Of a DNA stretch of 64,000 nt, positions 30,558-46,250 are shown one piece after another; position 1 is the stretch's first letter; the number at the start of each line of letters is the position of its first letter. A program made the translations under genes and the position numbers. Origin of the DNA: an uncultured Devosia sp. (GTDB lineage: Bacteria; Pseudomonadota; Alphaproteobacteria; Rhizobiales; Devosiaceae); the NCBI RefSeq assembly GCF_913055165.1, contig NZ_CAJXJS010000012.1:1-64000 (forward strand). Reading direction: 5' to 3'. The notes beneath the pieces were generated by a model. That model saw only the letters and a program-made list of their open reading frames with translations. It searched no databases and was not told the DNA's origin.

Positions 30558-31727
30558 TCATGCGGGGCCGAAGAGGCCGGACAGCATATGACGACGCGCC
30601 AGCTCCACCCCACCCAGGAGACCCGCCCGCCCGCCGGTTTCGCTGCGGCGCATGGTGACGGGACGCGGCCAGGCACGGCTTACATGGTGGCGCACCCGCT
30701 CGATGAGTTCCTCACGCGCCCCGATGCTACCGCCGAAGACCAGAAGCTCGACATCGAGAAGCGAGAGAATGCTGACGACGCCCTGGGCCACAAAGCCGGC
30801 GGTCTCCTCGATAATGTCGAGGGCCGCCTGTTCGCCGGCACGGGCGGCAGCGAAAATGTCCTGCACGCTCATCCGGCTTGAGCCGCCTGCTGCCACATAG
30901 CGGCGGCGAATGCCGGCCTCGCCGACCTGATCTTCCAGAGTTGTCCAGCCGTTACCGGCTGACTGCCAGAGCGGCAGATAACCCATTTCGCCGGCACCAC
31001 CATGGGCGCCACGCAACAATTGGCCATGGACCATGAGGGCTCCGCCAATGCCGGTGCCCAAGGCGACAAAAGCGGTGTTCTGCATGGTATCTGGCGGATG
31101 TCCCATGGCTTCGGCGACAAGGGCGAGATTGACGTCATTGTCGAGCACGACGCTGCCGCCCAGCGCTTGGGCAAGCGGTGGGAGGAGGTCCACATCCTCA
31201 ATGCCGGGAAGATTGCCGGCCAGGCTCGCGCGGCCACTTTGGTCGATCGCGGCCGGCACGCCGATCACAGTGTTGCGGACGCGAAAGCGTGGTTGCCCTG
31301 ACTGGCTGCACAAGCGATCAGCGATAGCGGCGAGCTGGCTGACCAGCTCATCGGCGCCGTTCCGGCTGGTGGGCTCGGTATGTTCGGCCAGGAGCTTACC
31401 GCGCATGTCGCAGAGGGCAGAGGCGATCTTGGTGCCGCCGATATCAAAGCCCATGGCCAGGGCCGCGTCGGCACGCAGGGCATAGGATAGCCGGGAGCGT
31501 CCAGGCATGCCGCCATGGGCTCCGGTGACCTGGACGAAGCCGCGGCTTTCCAGATCGGCCAGAAGGTCCGAAACGGCGTGGATCGGCAGGCCGACACGCC
31601 GGGACAACGCGGGTCGCTGGAGCGATGCGGAGGCCATCAAAGTGTCCACTACCGTGCGTAAGTAACCGTTTGGAGAATTTTTTCCACGCCTACCGTTTAG
31701 GCGCCGTCCGGATGGGGGGTCCGGCAT
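30558..31727 (-). CDS. ROK family transcriptional regulator/sugar kinase-like protein
   Basis: N-terminal winged HTH (LSRRVGLPIHAVSDLLADLESRGFVQV) plus MGFDIGGTKIASALCD ROK domain; start uncertain. Confidence 0.82.
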   Translation of the reverse strand: MPDPPSGRRLNGRRGKNSPNGYLRTVVDTLMASASLQRPALSRRVGLPIHAVSDLLADLESRGFVQVTGAHGGMPGRSRLSYALRADAALAMGFDIGGTKIASALCDMRGKLLAEHTEPTSRNGADELVSQLAAIADRLCSQSGQPRFRVRNTVIGVPAAIDQSGRASLAGNLPGIEDVDLLPPLAQALGGSVVLDNDVNLALVAEAMGHPPDTMQNTAFVALGTGIGGALMVHGQLLRGAHGGAGEMGYLPLWQSAGNGWTTLEDQVGEAGIRRRYVAAGGSSRMSVQDIFAAARAGEQAALDIIEETAGFVAQGVVSILSLLDVELLVFGGSIGAREELIERVRHHVSRAWPRPVTMRRSETGGRAGLLGGVELARRHMLSGLFGPA

Positions 31728-31935
31728 ATGTCCTTGAATCTCCAGCCGATCTTGAATGGAAGTTGCCTCGTTCCAGTCCACATCGCGCCCCATTTTCGCC
31801 CTCATGCAATTTTTTTCGTCTTGCGGATGTAACAATCTATCGCAAAGATGGTGCATGTAACGGCATAAAGCGCACGAAATGCAAGGTGCATTGCACGCCA
31901 AAGTGTCGAAGCAGGAGAGGGAGAGGAAGGCGTCG

Positions 31936-31949
31936 TGAAAATACTTTCA
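31936..31949. promoter_or_regulatory. Candidate operator dyad TGAAA-N4-TTTCA
   Basis: TGAAAATACTTTCA upstream of the substrate-binding protein gene, divergent from the ROK regulator; similar dyad at 39478. Confidence 0.4.
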
Positions 31950-32039
31950 TACGATATGTCAGCCGCTTCCAGGGCAAAGCATGCGTTGGCGTTGTCACCG
32001 ACTGGGTGCATCGTGCCGCGCAAACTGAGGAAGACGTCT

Positions 32040-33947
32040 ATGAACGCCAAGAAGTGGATCGCGTCTGTCGCGATCGCGGCATTGTCGAGCACGGCAATGA
32101 CTGCAGCTGCCTGGGCCTTCCAGGAAGCACCAATGCTCACGGAAATGGTCGAGGCGGGGGAGCTGCCGCCGGTTGACGAGCGGCTGCCGACCAGCCCGAC
32201 TGTGGTCGAGGCCGTCGAAGTTGGCCAGTACGGTGGCACCTGGCACCGCGCCTATAGCGGTCCGGGCGACCGCTGGGGGCCGACCAAGCTGATGGAAGAG
32301 CGCGTGCTGAAGTGGACGGCCGATGCCGACGGCAATGCCGTGCTGCAGCCGGGCTATATCGAAAGCTATTCCGTCAACGAGGATTCGACCGAATTCACCT
32401 TCACGCTGCTGGAAGGCCTCAAGTGGTCCGATGGCATGCCGGTGACCACTGAGGACGTCGAGTTCTGGTACAAGGATGTCTTCCTCAATACCGAGATCGT
32501 CCCCAATATCGACCCGACCTTTGCGCCTGGCGGCAAGCCGCTTGAGCTGGAAATCAAGGATGAGCGGACCTTCACGATCAAGTTCGCCCAGCCCTATGTG
32601 TACTTCCTGCAGATCCTGGCCAAGGACTCGACAGGTGAGCCGAGCCTGGACCGCCCCAGCTTCCTTTTCCCCAAGCACTATCTGAGCCAGTACAATAACA
32701 ACTACGCCAGCGAAGAAGAGCTGGCTGCGGCGGCCGCCAAGTACAATGTTGAGAACTGGAAGGGGCTCTGGGGGTCCAAGGGCGTCCTGACCGCCTGGTG
32801 GAACAACCCCGAGCTGCCGGTGCTGACCGCCTGGAAGATTGAAACGCCGGCACCCGCCGACGTCGTGACCATGGTCCGCAATCCCTATTATTACGCGGTG
32901 GACCAGGAGGGGAACCAGCTTCCCTATATCGACCGCATCGAGCACCGCCTGTACCAGGATCCGGAAACGCTCAACCTGATGGTTGCGCAGGGCCAGATCG
33001 ACATGCAGGGCCGCGGCATGAACCTGGATAACTATACGTTCTACAAGGAGAACGAGGAGCGCGGAAACTATGAGGTCGTGCCCGGTCGTGACTCCAACGT
33101 CTGGTCGATCGTGCCGAACCTGACGGTCAAGGACGAAGTGCTGCAGGAGCTGTTCCAGAGCGCTGACTTCCGCCAGGCCATGTCGCTTTCGGTTGATCGC
33201 GAGGCGATCATCGAGCTGACCCAGTCGGGTCTTGCCAATGCGGTTGCGGTGGCGCCGGTCAATGGTTCGCCCTATCACAAGGACGATCTGTCCAGCCACT
33301 GGGTGGACTATGATCCGGACACGGCCGATAGCCTGCTTGATGGCTTGGGACTGACCGAACGCGACGGCGCCGGCTTCCGTCTCCGCCCGGATGGGCAGCG
33401 CCTCAGCGTCACCATCGAGACCAGCGACCAGGCCAATGCCAAGACGCTCGAACTGCTCTCGGGCATGTTCGCCGATGTCGGCATCGAGCTGCTGCCGCGC
33501 GTCATCGACCGGACGCAGTGGGACAATAATCGCGACAACAACGACTTCCAGCTCCAGTGGATGCCGTTCGACCGCCTCACCTATGTGCCGGCCGACCCGC
33601 GCCTGATGATGGGCAGCCAGTCCTATGGCACCGAGTACTTCAAGTGGTACCAGACCAATGGTGAGAGCGGTGTGGAGCCGCCTGAAGGCAGCGCCATTCG
33701 CGAAATGTACGCCGACTGGGACAAGGCTTCGCAGGCCGTGAGCCTGGAAGAGGCCGACGCCGCCGTCAATGAGATGATCGCGACCTTCGTGGATCAGGGC
33801 TATGTCATCGGCGTGTATGGCGAGGGCGTGCTGGTGAACATCGTTTCGGACCGCATGAACAACTTCGTGCCCAACCTGGTTCAGGACGACATCTTCCGCG
33901 GTGTGGGCATCGCCCGTACCCAGCAGTTCTGGCTCGACCAGGAATAA
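32040..33947 (+). CDS. Peptide/oligosaccharide-type ABC transporter substrate-binding protein (SBP_bac_5)
   Basis: MNAKKWIASVAIAALSSTAMTAAAWA signal; EFTFTLLEGLKWSDGMPVTTEDVEFWYKDV; trimmed from GTG 31935. Confidence 0.88.
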   Translation: MNAKKWIASVAIAALSSTAMTAAAWAFQEAPMLTEMVEAGELPPVDERLPTSPTVVEAVEVGQYGGTWHRAYSGPGDRWGPTKLMEERVLKWTADADGNAVLQPGYIESYSVNEDSTEFTFTLLEGLKWSDGMPVTTEDVEFWYKDVFLNTEIVPNIDPTFAPGGKPLELEIKDERTFTIKFAQPYVYFLQILAKDSTGEPSLDRPSFLFPKHYLSQYNNNYASEEELAAAAAKYNVENWKGLWGSKGVLTAWWNNPELPVLTAWKIETPAPADVVTMVRNPYYYAVDQEGNQLPYIDRIEHRLYQDPETLNLMVAQGQIDMQGRGMNLDNYTFYKENEERGNYEVVPGRDSNVWSIVPNLTVKDEVLQELFQSADFRQAMSLSVDREAIIELTQSGLANAVAVAPVNGSPYHKDDLSSHWVDYDPDTADSLLDGLGLTERDGAGFRLRPDGQRLSVTIETSDQANAKTLELLSGMFADVGIELLPRVIDRTQWDNNRDNNDFQLQWMPFDRLTYVPADPRLMMGSQSYGTEYFKWYQTNGESGVEPPEGSAIREMYADWDKASQAVSLEEADAAVNEMIATFVDQGYVIGVYGEGVLVNIVSDRMNNFVPNLVQDDIFRGVGIARTQQFWLDQE

Positions 33948-33955
33948 AATGACAC

Positions 33956-33985
33956 GGCCCGGGGCGGTATTGTCCGCCCCGGGCC
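33956..33985. terminator. Intercistronic stem-loop between SBP and permease genes
   Basis: Perfect 12-bp inverted repeat GGCCCGGGGCGG-tattgt-CCGCCCCGGGCC. Confidence 0.55.
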
Positions 33986-34039
33986 ATTCATGTGACGTGG
34001 GCCGACCAATTTCCCGGGCCGGCCCGGAGGAACAGCAAC

Positions 34040-35026
34040 ATGATCGCCTTTATTATCCGGCGCGCCCTATTGGCGATCCCGACACTAATCTTCATTTCGT
34101 TCATTTCCTTTGTGATCATCCAACTGCCCCCGGGTGACTACATCACCGCCTACGCAGCCGAACTGCGTCATCAGGGCGAGTACATCACCGAGGCGCAGGA
34201 AGCGGCCATGCGGGCCCAATACGGGCTCAACGATCCCATGGTGATCCAGTACTGGCGCTGGATCAGCAACATCATCTTCCACGGCGATTTCGGCTATTCG
34301 CTGCAGTGGAACGCGCCGGTCTCGTCACTGATCTGGGACCGTCTGGCCATTACCCTGGCCATCTCGACCCTTAGCCTGGTCTTCACCTGGATCATCGCCA
34401 TTCCCGTGGGCGTCTATTCGGCCACACGGCAATATTCCGTGCTCGACTATGTGTTCACGGTCTTCGGGTTCCTGGGCAAGGGCGTTCCTGATTTTCTCCT
34501 GGCGCTCATCCTGATGTGGGTCAGCTTTGTCTATCTCAACCTCAATGTGGGCGGACTGTTTTCACCGCAGTTCCAATCGGCGCCATGGAGCGTGGCCAAG
34601 GTGATCGACCTCCTTCAGCACATCTGGATCCCCCTGGTCGTGCTGGCCACGGGCGGCGCTGCCGGGCTCATCCGCGTCATGCGCGCCAATATGCTGGACG
34701 AGCTGGGCAAGCCCTATGTGGAAACCGCCTATGCGCAGGGTCTGAGCGAGGGCCGCGTGGTCTGGGGCTATCCGGTGCGCGTGGCGCTCAACCCCTTCAT
34801 TTCCACGGTGGGCTGGGCGCTGCCGGCGCTGTTCTCGGGTGACATCATCACCGCGGTGGTGCTCAACCTGCCCACGACCGGGCCGCTGCTGCTGCAGGCC
34901 CTCAAGATGCAGGACATGTATCTGGCCGGCAGCTTCATTCTCGTGCTCAGCGTCTTCACCGTGATCGGTACGCTGATTTCCGACGTCCTGCTTGCGTGGT
35001 TCGATCCGCGCATCCGCTACGCCTAA
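34040..35026 (+). CDS. ABC transporter permease (DppB type)
   Basis: MIAFIIRRALLAIPTLIFISFISFVIIQLPPGD; EAA loop. Confidence 0.9.
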   Translation: MIAFIIRRALLAIPTLIFISFISFVIIQLPPGDYITAYAAELRHQGEYITEAQEAAMRAQYGLNDPMVIQYWRWISNIIFHGDFGYSLQWNAPVSSLIWDRLAITLAISTLSLVFTWIIAIPVGVYSATRQYSVLDYVFTVFGFLGKGVPDFLLALILMWVSFVYLNLNVGGLFSPQFQSAPWSVAKVIDLLQHIWIPLVVLATGGAAGLIRVMRANMLDELGKPYVETAYAQGLSEGRVVWGYPVRVALNPFISTVGWALPALFSGDIITAVVLNLPTTGPLLLQALKMQDMYLAGSFILVLSVFTVIGTLISDVLLAWFDPRIRYA

Positions 35027-35037
35027 GGGGACATGCG

Positions 35038-36168
35038 ATGACCGAACAGACCATGACCGCGCCCGAGCTCGTCAACGACAAGAAAGAGGACCTGTATACG
35101 GCAAAGCCTTGGCAGCTGGTGTGGCGGCGCTTCTCCAAGCATACGCTGGCCATGATCTCGCTGTGGTTCCTGAGCCTGCTGATCCTGGCGGCGATCTTTG
35201 CCGACATGGTGGCTCCATACAGCCCCTTCGAGGTGCAGCGCCTGCGCACACTGGCGCCCCCGACCTCCATCCATCTGTTTCATGAAGGCGCGTTCGTGGG
35301 GCCGTTCGTCTATGGCCTGGCAAGAGAACGCGATCCTGAAACGGCGCGCGTGAGCTTTGTGGAGGATACCGAGAAAGTATTGCCCATCCGGCTCTTCCAG
35401 CCGGGCGATGATTACAATTTCTTTGGCCTGTTCCAGTCCAATATCCATCTGTTCGGCGTCGATGACCGGCGCAACCAGATCAATCTGCTAGGCACGGACG
35501 ATCTTGGCCGGGATGTGTTTTCCCGCCTGATGCATGGCGCCCGGGTCAGTCTTTCGGCCGGTCTGGTGGGCGTGGCCTTTGCCTTTGTGCTCGGGCTGAC
35601 CCTGGGGTCGATCTCGGGCTATTTCGGAGGCTGGATCGACAGTTCAATCCAGCGGCTGATGGAGTTCATCCGCTCCATTCCGACCATTCCGCTGTGGATG
35701 GGCCTTGCGGCGGCGCTGCCGATCGCCTGGGACCCGATCTTTGTCTATGTGCTGATCACGCTGATCCTGGCGCTGATTGGCTGGACCCACCTGGCACGCG
35801 TTGTCCGCGGGCAGTTCTTTGCCATCCGCAATGAGGACTATGTGCTGGCCGCAAGACTGGCGGGTGCCTCGGAATACCGGATCATCACCAAGCACATGCT
35901 GCCCTCGATGACCTCGTACATTATTGCGGCGCTGACTTTGGCGGTGCCGGAAATGATCCTGGGCGAGACGGCGCTGAGCTTCCTGGGGCTGGGCCTGCGC
36001 CCGCCGGTGGTGAGCTGGGGCGTGTTGCTGCAGGACGCGCAGAACCTGCGTTCGATTTCACTGGCCCCCTGGCTGCTGTCGCCGGGCATCGCGGTGGTGC
36101 TCACCGTGCTGGCCTTCAACTTCCTGGGCGATGGCCTGCGCGATGCCGCCGATCCCTATGGGCAATAA
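35038..36168 (+). CDS. ABC transporter permease (DppC type)
   Basis: LLGTDDLGRDVFSRLMHGARVSLSAG; ETALSFLGLGLRPPVVSWG. Confidence 0.9.
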   Translation: MTEQTMTAPELVNDKKEDLYTAKPWQLVWRRFSKHTLAMISLWFLSLLILAAIFADMVAPYSPFEVQRLRTLAPPTSIHLFHEGAFVGPFVYGLARERDPETARVSFVEDTEKVLPIRLFQPGDDYNFFGLFQSNIHLFGVDDRRNQINLLGTDDLGRDVFSRLMHGARVSLSAGLVGVAFAFVLGLTLGSISGYFGGWIDSSIQRLMEFIRSIPTIPLWMGLAAALPIAWDPIFVYVLITLILALIGWTHLARVVRGQFFAIRNEDYVLAARLAGASEYRIITKHMLPSMTSYIIAALTLAVPEMILGETALSFLGLGLRPPVVSWGVLLQDAQNLRSISLAPWLLSPGIAVVLTVLAFNFLGDGLRDAADPYGQ

Positions 36169-36172
36169 GACC

Positions 36173-37207
36173 ATGACCACTTCAATCATGCCGCCGGCGC
36201 GGTTGCTCGAACTGGACAATGTCCAGGTGCACTTTCCCATGCGGGAGGGCCTGGTGAAGGCCGTCAACGGCGTGTCCTATCACGTGGACAAAGGCGAAGT
36301 CCTCGGCATTGTCGGGGAAAGCGGCTCGGGCAAATCGATTACCGCGCGCGCCATCATGCGCCTGCTGCCCAAGCGGGCCGTGGATGCGGGCGGGCAAATT
36401 CTGTTCCGGCCACGCACTGGAGAGGAATTCGAGCTCTCCCAATTGTCCCGGAACAGCCGGGCTATCCGGCAGGTGCGCGGCCATCATATCGGCATGATTT
36501 TCCAGGAGCCGATGACGGCGCTGTCGCCGGTGCATACCATCGGCACCCAGATCATGCGGACCATCCAGCTGCATATGGGGTTGGGACGGGCCGCTGCGCG
36601 GGAGCGGGCCATCGACCTTCTGGCCAAGGTGCAATTGCCGCGTCCCAAGGAACTGGTGGATGCCTATCCCCACCAGCTCTCCGGAGGCATGCGACAGCGC
36701 GCGATGATCGCGCTGGCCATCTCCTGCGATCCAAGCCTGCTGATCGCGGACGAGCCGACGACGGCGCTGGACGTGACCACCGAGGCGCAGATCCTGGACT
36801 TGCTCAAGTCCCTGCAATCGGAATTGGGCATGGCGATCATCTTCATTACCCACAATTTCGGGGTGGTGGCCGATATCGCCGATCGGGTCTCGGTGATGTA
36901 TCTGGGGCGCATTGTCGAGACGGCCAGCGTCGACGACATCTTCTATGCGCCCAAGCACCCCTATACCCAGGCGCTGCTGCGCTCGATCCCGCGGCTGGGG
37001 GTCGACCAGGGACGGCGCCTGCCGACCATTCCGGGCATGGTGCCTGACCCCTTCAGCGTGCCGAGCGGCTGCGCATTCAACCCGCGTTGCAGCCACGCGA
37101 TCACCGGGCTTTGCGAGGTGCAGGACCCGCCCGAGAAGCGCTTCAATGGACAGATGTCGCGCTGCCATATTGCCGACCGCTTTGCCCAGGAGCTCGCCCA
37201 TGTCTGA
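36173..37207 (+). CDS. ABC transporter ATP-binding protein (DppD type)
   Basis: [36 protein letters not shown]-terminal [11 protein letters not shown]. Confidence 0.9.
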
Positions 37208-38249
37208 GGCCATGACCAATGCTGCGGCGATGCCGGACGATGTGCTGATCTCGATCCGCAACCTCAAAAAGTATTTCCCGATCACCGCCGGCTGGTTGCG
37301 GCGGAAGGTGGGTGACGTCAAGGCGATCGACGACGTGTCGCTCGATATTCGCAAGGGCGAAACCTTCGGTCTGGTGGGCGAGTCGGGGTCGGGCAAATCG
37401 ACCGTCGCCCGGCTGATGCTGCGCGCCTATTCGCTGACCGAGGGGCAGATCCTGTTCCGCCAGGCGGATGGTTCGGTTGTCGATCTGTCCGGTCTCACTG
37501 ACCGGCAGATGCGGGCAATGCGCCGGGAGATGCAGATGATCTTCCAGGATCCGTATTCCTCGCTCAACCCGCGCATGACGCTGCTTGAGCTGGTGGGCGA
37601 GCCCATGGTGATCCATGGCGTGGGTACACAGGCGGAAATCCGCGACCGCGTTGCAGAACTGTTGCAGGTGGTGGGGCTGCGCCCCGAATTCCTCAACCGG
37701 TATCCGCATGCCTTTTCCGGTGGACAGCGCCAGCGCATCGGCATCGCTCGCGCCCTGGCGCTCAATCCCAGCTTCATCGCAGCGGACGAAGCGGTGTCGG
37801 CGCTGGACGTGTCGGTCGCTGCGCAGAACATCAACCTGCTGCAGGACCTGCAGGAAAAGTTCGGCCTGACCTATCTGTTCATCACCCATGACCTGGGCAT
37901 GGTCGAGCATATCTCGGATCGCGTTGGTGTGATGTATCTGGGCCGGCTGATGGAAGTGGCCCCCACAGCGCAGCTCTTCGCCAAGCCGCTGCACCCCTAT
38001 ACCGAGGCGCTGATGGCGGCGGTGCCGCAGCCGGACCCGCGCGGCAATCGTACGCGCAAGCGCGTGCCGCTCAAGGGCGAGATCGCCAATGCGGCCAATC
38101 CGCCGCCGGGGTGCAGCTTCCACCCCCGCTGCCCCTATGCGCAGGCTAAGTGCGCCACCGAGGTGCCGGCGCTGCGGACAGTGACCGATGGACGCCAGGT
38201 CCGTTGCCACTTTGCGGAAGAATTGTCGCTGGTCGGGGCGATGGCATGA
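37200..38249 (+). CDS. ABC transporter ATP-binding protein (DppF type)
   Basis: [35 protein letters not shown]; start within the upstream gene end. Confidence 0.9.
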   Translation: MSEAMTNAAAMPDDVLISIRNLKKYFPITAGWLRRKVGDVKAIDDVSLDIRKGETFGLVGESGSGKSTVARLMLRAYSLTEGQILFRQADGSVVDLSGLTDRQMRAMRREMQMIFQDPYSSLNPRMTLLELVGEPMVIHGVGTQAEIRDRVAELLQVVGLRPEFLNRYPHAFSGGQRQRIGIARALALNPSFIAADEAVSALDVSVAAQNINLLQDLQEKFGLTYLFITHDLGMVEHISDRVGVMYLGRLMEVAPTAQLFAKPLHPYTEALMAAVPQPDPRGNRTRKRVPLKGEIANAANPPPGCSFHPRCPYAQAKCATEVPALRTVTDGRQVRCHFAEELSLVGAMA

Positions 38250-39466
38250 GAATGGTCACCGAGCTCGATCTGGCCGCGCAACTGGCGCCCCAGCTGATGC
38301 TGGACGCGCGCGAGCCCTATCGACCGGTGGCCATGGGCTATACTGTTTTCCGGGAGGCCGGGCAGTCGCCGTCATCCAAATTCTGGGTCGAACCCGCGGC
38401 GGCGGTGACGGTCGAATACGCGATCTATTATGACTGGGACATCGGGCACCTCTACGACCTCGAGCATGTATGGGTGCATGCGGGCGCGGACGGTCAGATC
38501 GTGCGGGTTGAAGCCTCGGCCCATGGCGGACGCCTGGTGATGGATGCGGGTGGAGGCCGGGCCGAGATGCGCGACGGACGCGCGCTCGTCTATGTCGAGG
38601 CGGGCAAACACGCCCATTGGGCGAGCCCGGACCTGATGGGCGAGAGGGACCGAAAGAAGCTGGCGGCGCTATGTGGCCGGCTGGCGGGCCTGGAGGGTGT
38701 GCATCTGGGCAATCCTTTCGCGCAACGGGGCGTCTATCGGGCAAATGGCGAGGACCATCGTCTGGCCCGGCTCAAGATGCGGCGCGACGCCTTTGCGCCA
38801 AGCCACCACTATGTGCCGCTGGCCCAGCCGGTATCCCTGATGCCCTGGCCGGCATGGGAGGCGGCCATTCCGCGTCGGATCGAGGCCGAGCTGGCTCGTT
38901 TGCGCGCCGAGCTGCCGCACCTCAAGGCGGTGTTGCTGGATTGCGGCGACACGCTGGTCGATGAGCGCACCGAGGAGAAGGAGCCGGGCAGTGAAGTGGT
39001 GCTGCGTGGCGAGCTGATCCCGGGGGCGGCCGAGACGATGCGCGCGCTCAAGGATGCGGGCTATCGCCTCGTGCTGGTGGCAGACGGCCCGCGGCAGAGC
39101 TTTGTGAACCTGCTCGGTCATCATCAATTGTGGGACCTGTTCGACGCCCATGTGATTTCCGAGGATGTCGGTGCGCTCAAGCCCGATGCACGCATGTTCG
39201 ATACGGCCCTTGAGGCTGTGGGCCTGGACCGGTCCGACAGCTGGCGCTGCGTCATGGTGGGCAATAATCTGTCGCGTGATATCAAGGGCGCCAAGGCGCT
39301 CGGCATCATTTCGGTCTTCATGGCCTGGTCGAGCCTGCGTAGCCATGTGGCGGCCGATATCAGCGAACATCCCGACTATACCATCCGTTCTCCCGAAGAA
39401 CTGCCGGCCCTGCTGGAGCAGCTGGAAGACCTGCTGCATTACCGGGGGCCGGCGCCCTTTTTTTGA
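38246..39466 (+). CDS. Uncharacterised N-terminal domain fused to HAD-superfamily hydrolase
   Basis: C-terminal KAVLLDCGDTLVDERTEE...VLVADG...GALKPDARMFDTALEAVG...MVGNNLSRDIKGAKALGI HAD motifs. Confidence 0.78.
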   Translation: MRMVTELDLAAQLAPQLMLDAREPYRPVAMGYTVFREAGQSPSSKFWVEPAAAVTVEYAIYYDWDIGHLYDLEHVWVHAGADGQIVRVEASAHGGRLVMDAGGGRAEMRDGRALVYVEAGKHAHWASPDLMGERDRKKLAALCGRLAGLEGVHLGNPFAQRGVYRANGEDHRLARLKMRRDAFAPSHHYVPLAQPVSLMPWPAWEAAIPRRIEAELARLRAELPHLKAVLLDCGDTLVDERTEEKEPGSEVVLRGELIPGAAETMRALKDAGYRLVLVADGPRQSFVNLLGHHQLWDLFDAHVISEDVGALKPDARMFDTALEAVGLDRSDSWRCVMVGNNLSRDIKGAKALGIISVFMAWSSLRSHVAADISEHPDYTIRSPEELPALLEQLEDLLHYRGPAPFF

Positions 39467-39477
39467 TGAGTGCGAAC

Positions 39478-39491
39478 TGAAAGTCCTTTCA
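39478..39491. promoter_or_regulatory. Candidate operator dyad TGAAAG-N2-CTTTCA overlapping a start codon
   Basis: TGAAAGTCCTTTCA, preceded by terminator-like GGGC-cggc-GCCC-T7 at 39446-39464. Confidence 0.35.
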
Positions 39492-41944
39492 TGACGACCC
39501 CATTGATGCGGATTGCCCGTGGCGACAGCCTGAACGCATGGGAGCTTTCCGCTGTTGACGCACGCTATTTTCCCGGCGAGGCCGCGCCGGCGCGCGACCC
39601 GCAAAACTACAAGTATATCAACGGCTTCGTTGATGTCGGAGACCTGCCATGCCGGGTGGCAACCTGGCAGGAGGTGGCCACGCGCAGCGTGCAATTGCGC
39701 ACCGACTGGGCAGTCGAGAGCCTCTATTTGCCGGGCAGCAATCGCCGGGTGGAGTTCAGCCAGTTCCGGCATCGTCCGACGCGCCTGGCGCGCTGGTGCC
39801 GGACCCGGGTGGCGGCGCCGGAGGATCGCTATTGTTCGTTCCGCCTGTCGACCCGCGGGGGCGTTCATATCTGGGTGGACGGCGCGTTGGCCGGCCGGTT
39901 CGAGCCCTATACCCGCAACAGCACCGAAGAAACCGTGGTGCATCTGCCGCTCAAGGCCGGGGGCAGCGAGATCGTCGTTCTGACCGAGGACATGGCCGAG
40001 CGGGACATCAACTGGTTCTATGAACTGGTACTGCTGGACGATGTGCAGCTCGACGTGTTCCTGCCCGGCGCCAAGCTCGGCAGCAATGTCGATACGCTCA
40101 AATCGCTCTCCAGCCAGGTGCGGACACGCGGCGATGTGATCACCGCGGGGGATGATGTGACGCTGGTCTTCGATACGCCTGCCGGCATGGCGATCGATAT
40201 TCGTGCTGTCGTCACCTCGACCTCGCATACCCACGCGACCCTGCTCGACACGACCGTTCCCCTGCCGAGCGGGGCCCGTGAGGTCACGCTCTGCAAGGGC
40301 ACGGACCTGCCGCAGGGCTATCACAATCTGGAGTTGACTTTCGTGGCCGGTGACAGCCGCGTCGCGCGCGGTATTGGTTGCCCGATCCTGCATACGCTTG
40401 AGCCGAAATCGCTGGGCGACACTCTGGCCGCACGCAAGGCGAGGGCACTGGAGCATGCGGCGGTCAACGGCGAAAACCGGATGGGCACGGCCGTGGCGCT
40501 GCTGGAAACCGGCAGGGCCGATGATCCGCGGTTGCGGCCGATCATCGAGGAGACGCTGCTGACCATTGCCGAGCGGCGCGACTGTGCCGATTTCGTCTCG
40601 GTGCCACTGCTCTGGGCGTGGATGCGGCACGGCAGTGACTTTCCCGCTGACCTGGCAGAGAAGACCCGGCAGACCCTGATCGATTTCCGCTATTGGGTGG
40701 ATGAACCGGGCAATGACGTGATGTGGTTCTGGAGCGAGAACCATGCGCTGTGCTTCCATGTGTCCCAGCTTCTGGCCGGGCTGGCGTTTCCGGAAGCGAG
40801 GTTCACGGCATCGGGCCGAACGGGGCGCCAGCAGGCCGAAATTGCGGCCGGGCGGCTCGATCTCTGGCTGACCTCGGTTGAAGAGGAAGGCTTGGCCGAA
40901 TGGAACTCGGCGGCCTATTACCCGGTGGATTTCATCGGGCTCCTGGCGCTCGCGGAACTGGCGCCGGAGCCCATTGCCGGGCGGGCAAAGGTGCTCTGCG
41001 ACCGCATCTTCACCATGGTGGCGCTGCATACGATGGCCGGCGTTCCTGCCGGGTCGATGGGGCGGGCCTATGACAAGGAATTGCGGGCGGGTCCCTTGAC
41101 GGAGCTGGCGCCTTTTGCGGCCGTGGCCTTCGGATCGGGCTGGCTCAATACGGGCGTCGCCTCACTGCCGCTTTTCGCTGCGGGCGCCTATGAGCCGCCG
41201 GCGGAATTGGCCCGCTATGCCGAACCGGCCGCGGGTGAAGTGGTGCTCGCCCGTTATAGCCAGGGCTATGGTCCGGCGGCCCTGCTCAGCCTCTACAAGA
41301 CCGCCGATGTGCAGCTTTCCACCAATAGCGGTGCCAAGGCGGGTGGCTATGGCCACCAGCAGCATGTGCTCGATCTGCGCTTTGCCAGCCATCCCATGGC
41401 CCGGAGCTGGCTCAACCATCCGGGTGAAGACGACCCCTGGGGGCAGCAGCGTCCGTCCTATTGGGGTGGCAATGGGGTGCTGCCGCGCGTTGGCCAGCAT
41501 CGCAATGCGGCGCTGGTGCTGTATCGGCTGGGCGCGTCAGCCCGGCTCGATTTCACCCATGTCTATGCTGCGCGGGCGGGGCTGGTCCACCACCTCGATG
41601 GCGATACACTGATCCTCGAGGGGGGCGGGGGCCTGGTGGCCTACAAGGCCATGTCGCCGCTCGAAGCCATGCAGAGCGGGCCCTGCGCCGGTATTGAATA
41701 TCGCCAGCAGGGGCGGGAGCAGGGTTGGGCCGTCATCGTGGCTGAGGGCCAGGACCTTATGACCTTCAAAGCCTATGTCGGCCGCTGTGTGCTGCGCTTC
41801 CAGGGTGGCGACAGGCTGGTGCTGGAACGGCCCGGCGCGCGGGGCCTCGGGCTTGACTGGTCCAGGGGATTGCTGGTCGGAGAGGCAGAAGAACAGGAGC
41901 CGTTTGGTGGCGTGGTCCCCAGGATCACCACCGAAAGGCTGTAG
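39491..41944 (+). CDS. Uncharacterised 817-aa protein, possible novel glycoside-active enzyme
   Basis: No family recognised; long helical mid-region with aromatic-rich stretches (WFWSENHALCFHVSQLLAGLAFPE), embedded in a mannoside locus. Confidence 0.6.
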   Translation: MTTPLMRIARGDSLNAWELSAVDARYFPGEAAPARDPQNYKYINGFVDVGDLPCRVATWQEVATRSVQLRTDWAVESLYLPGSNRRVEFSQFRHRPTRLARWCRTRVAAPEDRYCSFRLSTRGGVHIWVDGALAGRFEPYTRNSTEETVVHLPLKAGGSEIVVLTEDMAERDINWFYELVLLDDVQLDVFLPGAKLGSNVDTLKSLSSQVRTRGDVITAGDDVTLVFDTPAGMAIDIRAVVTSTSHTHATLLDTTVPLPSGAREVTLCKGTDLPQGYHNLELTFVAGDSRVARGIGCPILHTLEPKSLGDTLAARKARALEHAAVNGENRMGTAVALLETGRADDPRLRPIIEETLLTIAERRDCADFVSVPLLWAWMRHGSDFPADLAEKTRQTLIDFRYWVDEPGNDVMWFWSENHALCFHVSQLLAGLAFPEARFTASGRTGRQQAEIAAGRLDLWLTSVEEEGLAEWNSAAYYPVDFIGLLALAELAPEPIAGRAKVLCDRIFTMVALHTMAGVPAGSMGRAYDKELRAGPLTELAPFAAVAFGSGWLNTGVASLPLFAAGAYEPPAELARYAEPAAGEVVLARYSQGYGPAALLSLYKTADVQLSTNSGAKAGGYGHQQHVLDLRFASHPMARSWLNHPGEDDPWGQQRPSYWGGNGVLPRVGQHRNAALVLYRLGASARLDFTHVYAARAGLVHHLDGDTLILEGGGGLVAYKAMSPLEAMQSGPCAGIEYRQQGREQGWAVIVAEGQDLMTFKAYVGRCVLRFQGGDRLVLERPGARGLGLDWSRGLLVGEAEEQEPFGGVVPRITTERL

Positions 41945-42016: not shown

Positions 42017-45000
42017 ATGCGCATTGAAAAGCTCGATCATCTTCTCGCCCGGCTGCGGAGCCGGATTTTCCAGCGGCTGGATACAACCCTGCCGCTGCGG
42101 TTCCGCCGGGGGCTGCCGGAAGAGCGGAGCAGGATTGTCGGGCAGGACCCGGCGAACTGGCAGGCGGTCGATCCGGAACTCGTCTGGGGGGAGCCGGAAA
42201 GCTATTTCTGGTTTGCCACACGCTTTGAATTGCCGGAGGCGGCGGCGGGGCGACGGGTGTTTCTCAAGGTCGATGCGCAGTTTGGCAATACGCGGGGGCG
42301 GTCGGACCCGCAATGCCTGGTGCGGGTCAACGGCAAGATTGCCCAGGGCGTGGATGGCAACCACCAGGAATTGCTGCTGAGTGAAGACGGGCTGGCCGGA
42401 GAGGTCTTTGACATCCTGCTCGAGGCCGGGACCATCGAGGACCGGCGCCAGCACGGCATGGCCATGGGGTTGATGTTGCATGATCCGCTCGTCGAGAAGG
42501 TGTTCTACGACCTTAGCGTGCCGCTCAATGTCGCGCGGCTTCTGGCGGCAGACGATCCGCGGCGGCACTTTATTCTGACCCGGGTCGATCGGGCGTTGCG
42601 TGAGGTCGATTTCCGGCCGGGCGATGCGGAGCGGTTTGCGGCATCGCTCCGCCGGGCCGAGGCCATCGGCGCGGAAATTTATGCGGCGGCCGATTTCGAG
42701 GAAAAGCCGGTGATCACGGTCACCGGGCACACCCATATCGATGTGGCCTGGCTGTGGCGCATCCGCGAGACGCGGCAGAAAATGGCGCGGTCCATGTCCA
42801 CGGCGCTGGCGCTGATGGAGCAATATCCGGACTATCGCTTCATGTACAATCAGGGTGTGCTGCTGGACTATCTCTCGGAGGATTATCCCGAAGTCTTCGA
42901 GCGGTTGCGGGGGCAGGTCAAGACGGGCCGGTTCGAGATCGAGGGCGCGCTATGGCTGGAGCCGGACGCCAACATCACCAATGGCGAGAGCTTCGTCCGG
43001 CATATTCTGCATGGCATCGCCTATCACCAGGAGACTTTCGGGGTCACGCCACGCATCTTCTGGCTGCCCGACACCTTCGGCTATTCGGCGGCATTGCCGC
43101 AATTGATGAAGCTCTCGGATGTGGATGTGTTCATCACCCACAAGCTGAGCTGGAACGACACCAATCGCATGCCCAACGAGACCTTCCACTGGGAGGGCAT
43201 CGATGGCAGCACGGTGGCGGCCTATTTCCTGACCACGCAGAATTACGATTCCAAGAGCATCGGCACCACCTATTGCCCCGATCTCAAGCCGACCCATGTG
43301 ATGGGGACCTGGCGGCGCCATGGCCAGCAGGACCTCAACAAGGAGTTGTTCCTGGTTTATGGCCATGGCGATGGCGGCGGCGGGCCCACCCGCGAAATGC
43401 TCGAAAACATCCGCCGCATGGAACAGGGCATCCCCGGTTGCCCCGCCGTGCGTCACGAGCATATGTGGCCGTTCTTCGAGCGCCTGCTTGGGCGCATGGC
43501 CGAACGGCCGCAGGACTATCCCACCTGGGTGGGCGAACTCTATCTCGAATACCACCGCGGCACGCTGACCTCGGTGGCCAAGAACAAGCGCAACAACCGG
43601 CGGGCTGAGCAGATCCTGCGCGAGATTGAGGCGCTGGCGGTGCTGGCCGAGCAGCGGGCAGGCATGACCTATCCAGCACGCGAATTGCATGAGCTGTGGC
43701 GGATCGTGCTGCTCAACCAGTTCCACGACATCCTGCCCGGTTCGTCGATCGGGGCGGTTTTCGATGACAGTGACCGGGACTATGCGGACTTCTTCGGCCG
43801 TGCCGAGACCTTGCGGGCAGAGCTGGGGGGCAACCTTGTATCCCAGGGAGAGTTCGCGCTGTTCAATGCGCTGGGCCGGCTACGGGATGGCTTGATCGAG
43901 ATTGAAGCCGATGCGCCCCATACAGTCACGACGGGCGGCGCGGACCTGGCGACGCAAACTTTACACCTGGCCGACGGCAGCACATGCCAGGGTGTGCCAG
44001 TGCGCGATCTGGCACCGCTGGCCCTGACACCGGTGAAACTTGCCGCAGGCGCCGCTGCTGCCGGTTCGGCAGATCTGAACGTCTCGACCTCGGTGCTGGA
44101 GAACAGCCTTATCGCGGCAAGGTTCGACGCCAAGGGCAGGATCGTCTCCCTGGTCGACAAGCGCTGTCAGCGCGAGCTGATCCCGCAAGGCGAAGTTGCC
44201 AACCGCTTCCAGGCCTATCGCGACATGCCGGTCGAATACGATGCCTGGGATATCGATGAGAGCTTTGAGGACCAGGTCTGGGATATCGATGAGCTGGTCT
44301 CGGCAGAGGTGGTGGAGACCGGGCCCTATCGGGCGGCCATTAGGTTCGAGTGGCGCTATGAAGGCTCGCGACTGGCGCAGGTCGTCTCACTGGAGGCCGG
44401 CAGCGACCAGCTCGGCTTCGACAGCTATGTCGACTGGCACGAGCATGACACGCTGGTCAAAACTGCCTTCCCGCTGGACCTGCTGGTACGCGAGAGTACA
44501 GCGGAGATTCAGTTCGGCCATGTGCGTCGGCCGGCCCACCGCAACACATCCTGGGACCAGGCCCGGTTCGAAACCGTCATGCATCGCTGGGTTGATCTGT
44601 CCGAGCCCGATTTCGGCGTGGCCATGCTCAATGACTGCAAATATGGCTATGACGTCGTGGGCAGTACCCTGCGGCTGACTGTGCTCAAATCGCCCACCTA
44701 TCCCTGGCCGATGGCGGATCAGGGCGAGCACCGGTTCCGCTATGCGCTGGTCGTGCATCACGGCCTGCTGGACAGTGATATTCCCGGCCGCGCCGAGGCC
44801 TATAACCTTCCCCTGAGACTGGTCGCGGGTGCGGCAAAGGGTCAGGTGGATACGGGTTCAGCGCTTCGCCTCGACGGCAAGGGCGTCACCCTCGAGGCAC
44901 TCAAGAAGAGCGAAAGCGGCGAGGGCATTGTGGTGCGCTTGTGGGAGACGCATGGCCGGGCGAACGAAGCGGTGCTGCACCTTCCGGCCGGTATCACGAA

Positions 45001-45115
45001 TGCCGAAATCGTCAACCTGCTCGAGCAAAAGGGACAGCGACTGACTATCGCAGATGGTGCGGTAACGCTGCGCTTTGCGCCGTTCCAGATTGTAACGCTC
45101 AAGCTCACTGCCTGA
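42017..45115 (+). CDS. Alpha-mannosidase, glycoside hydrolase family 38
   Basis: TGHTHIDVAWLWRIRETRQKMARSMSTALALMEQYPDYRFMYNQ, EIEGALWLEPDANITNGES, FWLPDTFGYSAALPQ. Confidence 0.93.
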   Translation: MRIEKLDHLLARLRSRIFQRLDTTLPLRFRRGLPEERSRIVGQDPANWQAVDPELVWGEPESYFWFATRFELPEAAAGRRVFLKVDAQFGNTRGRSDPQCLVRVNGKIAQGVDGNHQELLLSEDGLAGEVFDILLEAGTIEDRRQHGMAMGLMLHDPLVEKVFYDLSVPLNVARLLAADDPRRHFILTRVDRALREVDFRPGDAERFAASLRRAEAIGAEIYAAADFEEKPVITVTGHTHIDVAWLWRIRETRQKMARSMSTALALMEQYPDYRFMYNQGVLLDYLSEDYPEVFERLRGQVKTGRFEIEGALWLEPDANITNGESFVRHILHGIAYHQETFGVTPRIFWLPDTFGYSAALPQLMKLSDVDVFITHKLSWNDTNRMPNETFHWEGIDGSTVAAYFLTTQNYDSKSIGTTYCPDLKPTHVMGTWRRHGQQDLNKELFLVYGHGDGGGGPTREMLENIRRMEQGIPGCPAVRHEHMWPFFERLLGRMAERPQDYPTWVGELYLEYHRGTLTSVAKNKRNNRRAEQILREIEALAVLAEQRAGMTYPARELHELWRIVLLNQFHDILPGSSIGAVFDDSDRDYADFFGRAETLRAELGGNLVSQGEFALFNALGRLRDGLIEIEADAPHTVTTGGADLATQTLHLADGSTCQGVPVRDLAPLALTPVKLAAGAAAAGSADLNVSTSVLENSLIAARFDAKGRIVSLVDKRCQRELIPQGEVANRFQAYRDMPVEYDAWDIDESFEDQVWDIDELVSAEVVETGPYRAAIRFEWRYEGSRLAQVVSLEAGSDQLGFDSYVDWHEHDTLVKTAFPLDLLVRESTAEIQFGHVRRPAHRNTSWDQARFETVMHRWVDLSEPDFGVAMLNDCKYGYDVVGSTLRLTVLKSPTYPWPMADQGEHRFRYALVVHHGLLDSDIPGRAEAYNLPLRLVAGAAKGQVDTGSALRLDGKGVTLEALKKSESGEGIVVRLWETHGRANEAVLHLPAGITNAEIVNLLEQKGQRLTIADGAVTLRFAPFQIVTLKLTA

Positions 45116-45137: not shown

Positions 45138-46250
45138 ATGATGATCCCTCCGCTCCCCGACACGTTGCCGGCCCCCGAAACATTCTCGCAAGGGGTATGG
45201 GTCAAGGGCGACTGGCACCTGCACTCCCGGCACAGCACCGATTCCACGAATAATCCGCAGTCCAAGATCATCGGCTTTGCCGAGCGCATGGGTTTTGACT
45301 ACCTCGCGATCACCGACCACGACGTGCATGTGATGGGGGCGGTGGCCCACCACACCTGGGCCGATCCGGAATTCCGGTCTGACAGCGTGTTGCTGTTCTA
45401 TGGCGCGGAACTGACGGCGCCGCGCGGGCATATCAACATTCTCTCGTCAGACCCCTATGATCATCAGCGCGTTTTCGATGCGCGCGATGACCGGGACTGG
45501 AACCTGCTCAAGCTCAAGCAGGAACTGGGGGTGCATATGTCGGCCAACCATCCCAGCACTAAGAACCATTACGGCTTTTCCTTCGACCTGGCGGATTCGG
45601 TTGAAATCTGGAACGGCTGCGTGTGGCCCAAGAATATTCCCGGCGTTCGCATCTGGGATGACATGCTGCTATCCGGGCGCATGCTGGGGGCACGTGGGGG
45701 CAGTGATGCCCATCATGGCGTACCCGACCGGCCAGACCAGATCGTGCCGCAAACCGTGGAGGCCACGTCCAATTATGTCGGCACGCCGACGACCTGGATA
45801 TTTGCCGCCGAGCGCAGCAAGCCGGCCATTCTGCAGGCCCTGGAACAGGGGCGCGCCTCGGTCAGTTCCAACCCCTATAATCCGCGGGTCGAGCTCTATG
45901 CCGATACGGACGGGGACGGGGTGATGGACATGATGATGGGCGACAATGTCAAACCCGATGGGCGGGAGGTGCGGTTCGAGGTGCGCCTGGTGGGCGGCGG
46001 CATTGCCGGCGCCAATTATGCCGTGCGGGTGATCAAGAACCGGAGCCCATTTGCCAGCCTGGTGACGGATGCGGACACGCGCAGCGTGCAATTCACCGAT
46101 ACGCCAGGGATTGGCGAGCGCAACTATTATCGGGTGGAGATCGAAGGACCGCAGGCGCCATATCCGGAAGTGCCCAATTCCATGGCGCAGAGCCAGAACA
46201 TGGTGGCGCTCTCAAACCCGCTCTATTTCAACTACAATCCTGCCTTCTAA
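45138..46250 (+). CDS. PHP-domain metal-dependent phosphoesterase-like protein
   Basis: GDWHLHSRHSTDSTNNPQSKIIGFAERMGFDYLAITDHDVH; GSDAHHG. Confidence 0.82.
   Translation: MMIPPLPDTLPAPETFSQGVWVKGDWHLHSRHSTDSTNNPQSKIIGFAERMGFDYLAITDHDVHVMGAVAHHTWADPEFRSDSVLLFYGAELTAPRGHINILSSDPYDHQRVFDARDDRDWNLLKLKQELGVHMSANHPSTKNHYGFSFDLADSVEIWNGCVWPKNIPGVRIWDDMLLSGRMLGARGGSDAHHGVPDRPDQIVPQTVEATSNYVGTPTTWIFAAERSKPAILQALEQGRASVSSNPYNPRVELYADTDGDGVMDMMMGDNVKPDGREVRFEVRLVGGGIAGANYAVRVIKNRSPFASLVTDADTRSVQFTDTPGIGERNYYRVEIEGPQAPYPEVPNSMAQSQNMVALSNPLYFNYNPAF

What the first reader, a model, noticed from the sequence alone, without database searches (positions are those of the whole stretch)
39491..41944. Unassigned 817-aa protein next to GH38, possible new carbohydrate-active family
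No recognisable family by eye. It has an apparent beta-rich N-terminal region (sugar-binding-like: SFRLSTRGGVHIWVDGALAGRFEPYTRNSTEETVVHLPL) followed by a long helical segment with WFWSENHALCFHVSQLLAGLAFPE and RPSYWGGNGVLPRVGQHRNAALVLYRL, reminiscent of (alpha/alpha)6-barrel lyases/hydrolases plus a beta-sandwich.
Basis: inference. Interest (0 to 1): 0.6.

Follow-up and report, generated by a model that had tools for sequence, protein, structure and literature searches.

The report
Probable new family of sugar-cutting lyases
A protein that soil and plant-associated bacteria keep next to sugar importers, and that databases call only 'hypothetical', is very probably a new family of enzyme that cuts imported acidic plant or microbial sugars by elimination, and it marks a sugar-eating pathway nobody has named.

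Summary
The 817-aa protein is real. It matches no family in Pfam, NCBIfam or PHROGs and no PDB sequence, yet relatives occur in over 200 alpha- and gammaproteobacterial genomes, one Bacillota record and haloarchaea, annotated 'hypothetical protein'. AlphaFold gives a GH2-like jelly-roll/Ig front (1-305), an alpha/alpha domain (306-580) and an antiparallel beta domain (581-817). Searched alone, the catalytic half hits 28 PDB chains at E<=0.001, all polysaccharide lyases (PL8, 15, 17, 33, 35, 39 type). Its invariant Asn-His, Tyr and near-invariant His have about the spacing of the Asn/His-Tyr-His triad of PL15/17/39. The gene sits beside GH105 unsaturated-uronyl hydrolase (59 of 80 loci), and in the paralogue clade with KduI, KduD and sugar importers: a uronate-lyase pathway without another lyase. 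I conclude: a cytoplasmic oligosaccharide lyase of a probably new family. The window's genus (Devosia) mostly lacks GH105 but has a dedicated GH38 alpha-mannosidase (second GH38 in 14/17 genomes with the gene, 0/19 without; same pairing in the Bacillota locus). The substrate stays open: rhamnogalacturonan/gum-arabic-type Rha-uronate, or xanthan/glucuronomannan-type Man-GlcA. Activity is inferred, not shown; CAZy/dbCAN could not be searched.

The parts
39491..41944 (+). gene of the 817-aa putative oligosaccharide lyase (alternative GTG start at 39470)
   Evidence: open frame; 222 confirmed relatives in genome contigs
39491..40405 (+). residues 1-305: N-terminal all-beta part, jelly-roll plus Ig-like, resembling the N-terminal domains of GH2 enzymes
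   Evidence: AlphaFold model; whole-model Foldseek hits are GH2 beta-glucuronidases/galactosidases, many over about 310-400 columns
40406..41230 (+). residues 306-580: alpha/alpha helical domain
   Evidence: AlphaFold models
41231..41941 (+). residues 581-817: C-terminal antiparallel beta domain
   Evidence: AlphaFold models
40739..40744 (+). Asn417-His418 (SENH motif), proposed carboxylate neutraliser and catalytic His
   Evidence: 102/102 sequences; role inferred from spacing to PL15/17/39 triads
40916..40918 (+). Tyr476, proposed catalytic acid/base
   Evidence: 102/102 sequences; its neighbour Y477 varies; role inferred
41063..41071 (+). Arg525 and Tyr527 (GRxY motif), invariant, probably substrate binding
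   Evidence: 102/102 sequences; role inferred
41417..41419 (+). His643 (NHPGE motif), proposed second catalytic His of the beta domain
   Evidence: 100/102 sequences; role inferred from spacing
42017..45115 (+). GH38 alpha-mannosidase-type partner, no signal peptide apparent
   Evidence: Pfam GH38 N, mid, C domains; linked to the lyase in Devosia and in a Bacillota locus
38150..39466 (+). HAD-type hydrolase with a ~215-aa N-terminal part of unknown kind; start codon uncertain
   Evidence: Pfam HAD 251-385; within 300 bp of the lyase gene in 29/80 loci
31935..38249 (+). oligopeptide/oligosaccharide-type ABC importer: SBP_bac_5, two permeases, two ATPases (substrate uptake)
   Evidence: Pfam and NCBIfam; the same five genes precede the lyase gene in many loci
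30558..31901 (-). ROK-family regulator, divergent from the operon
   Evidence: Pfam ROK E 5e-40
45138..46250 (+). CehA/McbA-family PHP metallohydrolase at the operon end
   Evidence: NCBIfam NF038032 127 bits against cut-off 80

Best explanation
The protein is a cytoplasmic polysaccharide/oligosaccharide lyase. An ABC importer brings an oligosaccharide containing a 4-linked uronic acid into the cell. The N-terminal GH2-like beta domains help to hold it. The catalytic half (an alpha/alpha domain plus an antiparallel beta domain) cleaves the bond at O4 of the uronate by beta-elimination: Asn417, with His418, neutralises the carboxylate, Tyr476 acts as acid and perhaps base, His643 as base or +1/+2 binder. 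This leaves a 4,5-unsaturated uronyl end. In most relatives the neighbouring GH105 removes that residue and KduI/KduD lead it towards KDG. In the window's Devosia clade the operon carries GH38 instead, so mannose-type residues are probably removed next and the unsaturated uronate may enter a KdgF-KduI-KduD set elsewhere in the genome. Shown by computation: family, conservation, predicted fold, linkage. Inferred: elimination chemistry, residue roles, pathway order, substrate.
For: Fold: catalytic-half model mean pLDDT 85.3, pTM 0.88; all 28 PDB hits at E<=0.001 are (alpha/alpha)n + beta lyases: PL35 GAGases 8khv/8khw, PL33 BT4410, PL17 Alg17c, PL15 Atu3025 and exoHep, PL8 chondroitinase AC and xanthan lyase, alginate lyase Dp0100. 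Residues: N417, H418, Y476, R525, Y527, H690 in 102/102 sequences, H643 in 100/102, including Bacillota and archaeal members; spacing 59 and 167 against 54/165-166 (PL15), 53/166 (PL39), 57/155 (PL17), 54/155 (PL35) (published triads from PMC12088678 Table 4). Context: GH105 within 300 bp in 59/80 loci, nearest solved relatives are the GH105 proteins 3qwt/3pmm; GH105-KduI-gene-importer-KduD operons with no other lyase (kinase, PfkB), TRAP version.
Against: No biochemical evidence. No sequence or profile similarity to a known lyase family. Spacing to H643 is a pattern match, not a superposition. In Devosia GH105 is absent from 15/17 genomes with the gene, so there the product route is unproven; one such genome (G420) lacks KduI too.
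Confidence: 0.8

Rival explanations
1. Substrate reading A: the lyase cuts a rhamnosyl-(1,4)-uronate bond (rhamnogalacturonan I oligosaccharides, or the Rha-(1,4)-GlcA caps of arabinogalactan/gum arabic), feeding GH105 unsaturated rhamnogalacturonyl/glucuronyl hydrolase.
For: Adjacent GH105 proteins are nearest to 3qwt/3pmm; GH28 next door in the Rhizobium/Agrobacterium clade (38/80 loci); L-rhamnose importer, mutarotase and aldolase genes beside the Thioclava copy; KduI/KduD in the paralogue clade.
Against: Devosia, including the window genome, has no GH105 in most members and carries GH38 instead. GH105 also serves other unsaturated uronides.
Confidence: 0.4
2. Substrate reading B: the lyase cuts a mannosyl-(1,4)-glucuronate bond (xanthan side-chain oligosaccharides, glucuronomannan), so that unsaturated GlcA-(1,2)-Man remains, and GH38 then removes the alpha-mannose.
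For: GH38 directly downstream in the window and a second GH38 in 14/17 Devosia genomes with the gene against 0/19 without (Fisher p 1.8e-7, not corrected for kinship); GH38, GH105 and ROK regulators beside the gene in a Bacillota record; 14/80 loci have GH38 within 9 kb. Known xanthan pathways pair a lyase, GH88 and GH38 (PMC10881899).
Against: The Rhizobium clade has GH28 and mostly no GH38 nearby; no xanthanase, PL8 or acetyl-esterase was identified in the neighbourhoods; GH38 covers several activities.
Confidence: 0.35
3. It is a glycoside hydrolase with an alpha/alpha domain and beta sandwiches rather than a lyase.
For: Weak Foldseek matches to GH127/GH146 and BT_1003 (5mqo) further down the list; GH2-like front domains.
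Against: Every PDB hit at E<=0.001 for the catalytic half is a lyase; invariant Asn-His/Tyr/His fits lyases. The GH2 resemblance concerns the non-catalytic front domains.
Confidence: 0.1
4. It is a uronyl C5-epimerase or a non-catalytic uronide-binding protein that reuses the lyase fold.
For: Epimerases and lyases share chemistry (general knowledge); nothing direct.
Against: Catabolic operons with GH105/KduI/KduD need an unsaturated product and contain no other lyase candidate; the putative catalytic set is invariant, which argues against a binding-only role.
Confidence: 0.07

Closest known systems
(alpha/alpha)n-toroid plus antiparallel-beta polysaccharide lyases (PL8, PL12, PL15, PL17, PL21, PL33, PL35, PL39)
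   Same: Predicted fold of the catalytic half; Asn/His-Tyr-His arrangement with closely similar spacing; as in exolytic oligo-alginate lyases, apparently an intracellular oligosaccharide step.
   Different: No detectable sequence or profile similarity; a ~305-residue GH2-like jelly-roll/Ig front replaces or precedes the usual start; distinctive invariant motifs DCxDF, SENHxLxFH, EWNSxxYYPxD, GRxY, NHPGE, RPSYW.
PL27 L-rhamnose-alpha-1,4-D-glucuronate lyases (BT0263, BACCELL_00875)
   Same: Beta-sandwich front followed by an (alpha/alpha)6 domain, rhamnosyl-uronate elimination (PMC8377490); association with unsaturated-uronide metabolism.
   Different: The description of PL27 ends with the (alpha/alpha)6 barrel, whereas here a ~235-residue beta domain with H643 and H690 follows. 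No PL27 sequence was at hand, so relatedness was not tested.
GH105/KduI/KduD pectin-oligosaccharide utilisation operons
   Same: Same downstream enzymes and sugar ABC or TRAP importers.
   Different: The lyase slot is filled by this unassigned protein.
Xanthan degradation systems (xanthan lyase PL8, GH88, GH38)
   Same: Pairing of a lyase-fold protein with GH38 and GH88/105-type enzymes.
   Different: The lyase is not recognisable as PL8 by sequence; no xanthanase identified; the window genome lacks GH88/105.

Membership tests
(alpha/alpha)n + antiparallel beta lyase fold class | alpha/alpha toroid followed by antiparallel beta domain | tested here: met
   AlphaFold models; 28/28 PDB hits at E<=0.001 are such lyases; a prediction only
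(alpha/alpha)n + antiparallel beta lyase fold class | catalytic Asn/His, Tyr, His in one cleft | tested here: inconclusive
   residues conserved with similar spacing; positions in space not measured, loops of low confidence
(alpha/alpha)n + antiparallel beta lyase fold class | beta-elimination producing a 4,5-unsaturated uronate | not testable with these tools
   needs an enzyme assay; operon context agrees
Heparinase II/III family (Pfam PF07940; PL12/15/17/21 relatives) | sequence/profile match | tested here: not met
   no Pfam hit at E<=1; hhalign against 30 PF07940 proteins from related genomes: probability 0.2%, E 0.31
GH105/GH88 | PF07470 match | tested here: not met
   no Pfam hit; GH105 is a separate neighbouring gene
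GH2 | jelly-roll, Ig and TIM-barrel catalytic domain | tested here: not met
   only the front domains resemble GH2; no TIM barrel in the model
PL27 and PL26 | sequence relatedness to the CAZy family | not testable with these tools
   no CAZy/dbCAN library; no member sequence at hand; no PDB sequence hit at E<=10

The most novel reading that the evidence does not exclude
A new polysaccharide lyase family, unrelated by sequence to any classified one, whose members are the missing intracellular lyase step of two related pathways: one through GH105/KduI in rhizobia and marine bacteria, and a GH105-independent one in Devosia in which a dedicated GH38 partners the lyase on a mannose-uronate oligosaccharide.
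Probability: 0.5. Interest if true: 0.65.

Novelty: new variant of a known kind. Interest (0 to 1): 0.52.

Why it matters
If confirmed, it adds a lyase family to a well-studied fold class and names a protein carried on hundreds of rhizobial plasmids and chromosomes as 'hypothetical'. It fills the one missing step in otherwise complete uronide-catabolic operons of plant-associated bacteria, makes their diet testable, and offers a tool enzyme for acidic plant or microbial glycans. The swap of GH105 for GH38 within the family offers a natural experiment on substrate change.

Tried and rejected
Whole-protein fold search is dominated by GH2 front domains; rejected as a guide to catalysis and repeated with the catalytic half. 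Profile search of PDB sequences with the 13-member alignment gave only chance-like hits (SLD7, RNA polymerase subunit e''). Profile comparison with heparinase II/III gave nothing. Two own-genome PF04962 hits first taken for KduI are probably IolB, one beside an IolD-like gene; the true KduI-KduD pair is on contig C32. KduI presence was tried as a co-occurrence test and is uninformative: it is in 33/36 Devosia genomes regardless. GH105 shows no association with the gene inside Devosia (2/17 v 2/19). Viral fold library: two hits at E<=0.001, not followed; no phage DNA match. Literature searches for a named lyase in this context found none. A search centred on haloarchaea was not possible with the tool.

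Full report
Observation. The frame 39491-41944 (+) encodes 817 residues with the quoted motifs. The upstream GTG at 39470 is also in frame. Neighbours are a divergent ROK regulator, a five-gene oligopeptide/oligosaccharide-type ABC importer, a HAD hydrolase, this gene, GH38, and a CehA/McbA-type PHP protein. The nearest named relatives are Devosia species, and same-genus genomes carry it at up to 81% identity, so I take the window to be a Devosia-type genome. The start MTTPLMRIARGDSLNAWELS shows no signal peptide by eye, so I place the protein in the cytoplasm (inference).

Family. Pfam, NCBIfam, PHROGs and PDB sequence searches find nothing credible, also for distant relatives. The family itself is wide: 222 confirmed genome loci, 200 plasmid records, mostly Rhizobium and Pseudosulfitobacter, annotated 'hypothetical protein' where annotated, 9 of 399 genomes sampled across the phylum, with a second copy in several Rhizobiaceae-like genomes, a record labelled Subdoligranulum variabile at 33% identity, and 661-aa haloarchaeal forms that lack most of the front domains. 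A maximum-likelihood tree separates the paralogue clade, a Rhizobium/Agrobacterium clade and a clade that contains the Devosia group.

Fold. Full-length AlphaFold: pLDDT 85.6, pTM 0.85. The whole model matches GH2 enzymes through the front domains. The catalytic half alone (residues 303-817; pLDDT 85.3, pTM 0.88) matches 28 PDB chains at E<=0.001, and all are polysaccharide lyases of the alpha/alpha plus antiparallel-beta class. TM-scores are modest (0.31-0.48), as expected for distant kin with different domain angles, so I claim the fold class and not membership of one PL family.

Catalytic residues. In 102 sequences N417, H418, Y476, R525, Y527 and H690 never vary and H643 is kept in 100. 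A published comparison lists Asn/His, Tyr and His triads for PL12, 15, 17, 21, 35 and 39 (PMC12088678). Their spacings are 53-57 and 130-166 residues; here they are 59 and 167. The adjacent Asn-His pair also occurs in PL17, PL39 and exoHep. This is pattern agreement; coordinates could not be inspected.

Pathway. GH105 lies within 300 bp in 59 of 80 loci. In Phyllobacterium, Shinella and Gemmobacter the operon reads LacI | GH105 - KduI - this gene - binding protein - two permeases - UgpC - KduD, with a PfkB sugar kinase next in Gemmobacter. In Pseudosulfitobacter and Salipiger TRAP importers take the place of the ABC set. R. johnstonii 3841 has GH105, GH28 and an ABC importer; Thioclava has rhamnose genes beside it. 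Such sets need an enzyme that makes the unsaturated uronide, and this protein is the only unassigned candidate. The unsaturated oligosaccharide could instead come from outside, made by other organisms, which is why activity must be shown.

The Devosia exception. PF07470 is absent from the window genome and passes the cut-off in only 2 of 17 Devosia genomes with the gene. In its place stands GH38: 14 of 17 genomes with the gene have a second GH38, none of 19 without it (p 1.8e-7, kinship not corrected), and in 8 the GH38 domain lies within 3 kb. GH38 (38% identical), two GH105 genes and ROK regulators also surround the Bacillota copy. D. oryzisoli has GH29 instead. The GH105-bearing outgroups suggest GH105 was lost in the Devosia clade. 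The window genome has a KduI-KduD pair with a cupin gene that looks like KdgF and a TRAP importer gene on contig C32, which could take free unsaturated uronate; but KduI is nearly universal in the genus, so this is compatible, not evidence.

Verdict. Cytoplasmic oligosaccharide lyase, about 80%. Substrate undecided between rhamnosyl-uronate and mannosyl-glucuronate linkages; it may differ between clades. Closest known kind: (alpha/alpha)n lyases. Not a member of heparinase II/III by the sequence test. Probably a new PL family, with the caveat that CAZy could not be searched and PL27, which also joins a beta sandwich to an (alpha/alpha)6 domain (PMC8377490), was not compared.

Noticed in passing
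window 38150-39466: HAD hydrolase with an N-terminal part of about 215 residues without Pfam match; it precedes the lyase gene in 29/80 loci, so it probably belongs to the pathway. Its start codon is probably downstream of 38150, since the frame overlaps the ATPase gene.
   Followed up: partly
window 45138-46250: CehA/McbA-type PHP metallohydrolase at the operon end, also after GH38 in L003, L004 and L011; role in the pathway unknown.
   Followed up: no
L141 364-19048: Record labelled Subdoligranulum variabile: lyase relative with two GH105, a GH38, two or more ROK genes, a PfkB kinase and an MGH1-like/GH63-type glycosidase; looks like a complete locus in Bacillota.
   Followed up: partly
L094, L102, L103, L096, L142: Paralogue clade with GH105-KduI-lyase-importer-KduD operons; the cleanest place to test the pathway.
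   Followed up: partly
L008 12454-14055: Alpha-L-fucosidase (GH29) follows the lyase gene in Devosia oryzisoli, in the position of GH38 or GH105 elsewhere.
   Followed up: no
L035 and L036 (residue equivalent to H643): Two Rhizobium members have Gln in place of the otherwise conserved His643; natural variants for testing the role of this residue.
   Followed up: no
L097 13782-15767, L143 9791-11776: Haloarchaeal relatives of 661 aa without most of the front domains, near heparinase II/III, Gfo/Idh and sugar isomerase genes.
   Followed up: partly
L101 (own genome contig C32, about 760-2348): KduI-KduD pair with a KdgF-like cupin, GntR-type regulator and TRAP importer genes.
   Followed up: partly
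L150 (G420): A Devosia-type genome with the lyase gene in the UgpC-type arrangement, without GH105 over the cut-off and without a KduI match.
   Followed up: no
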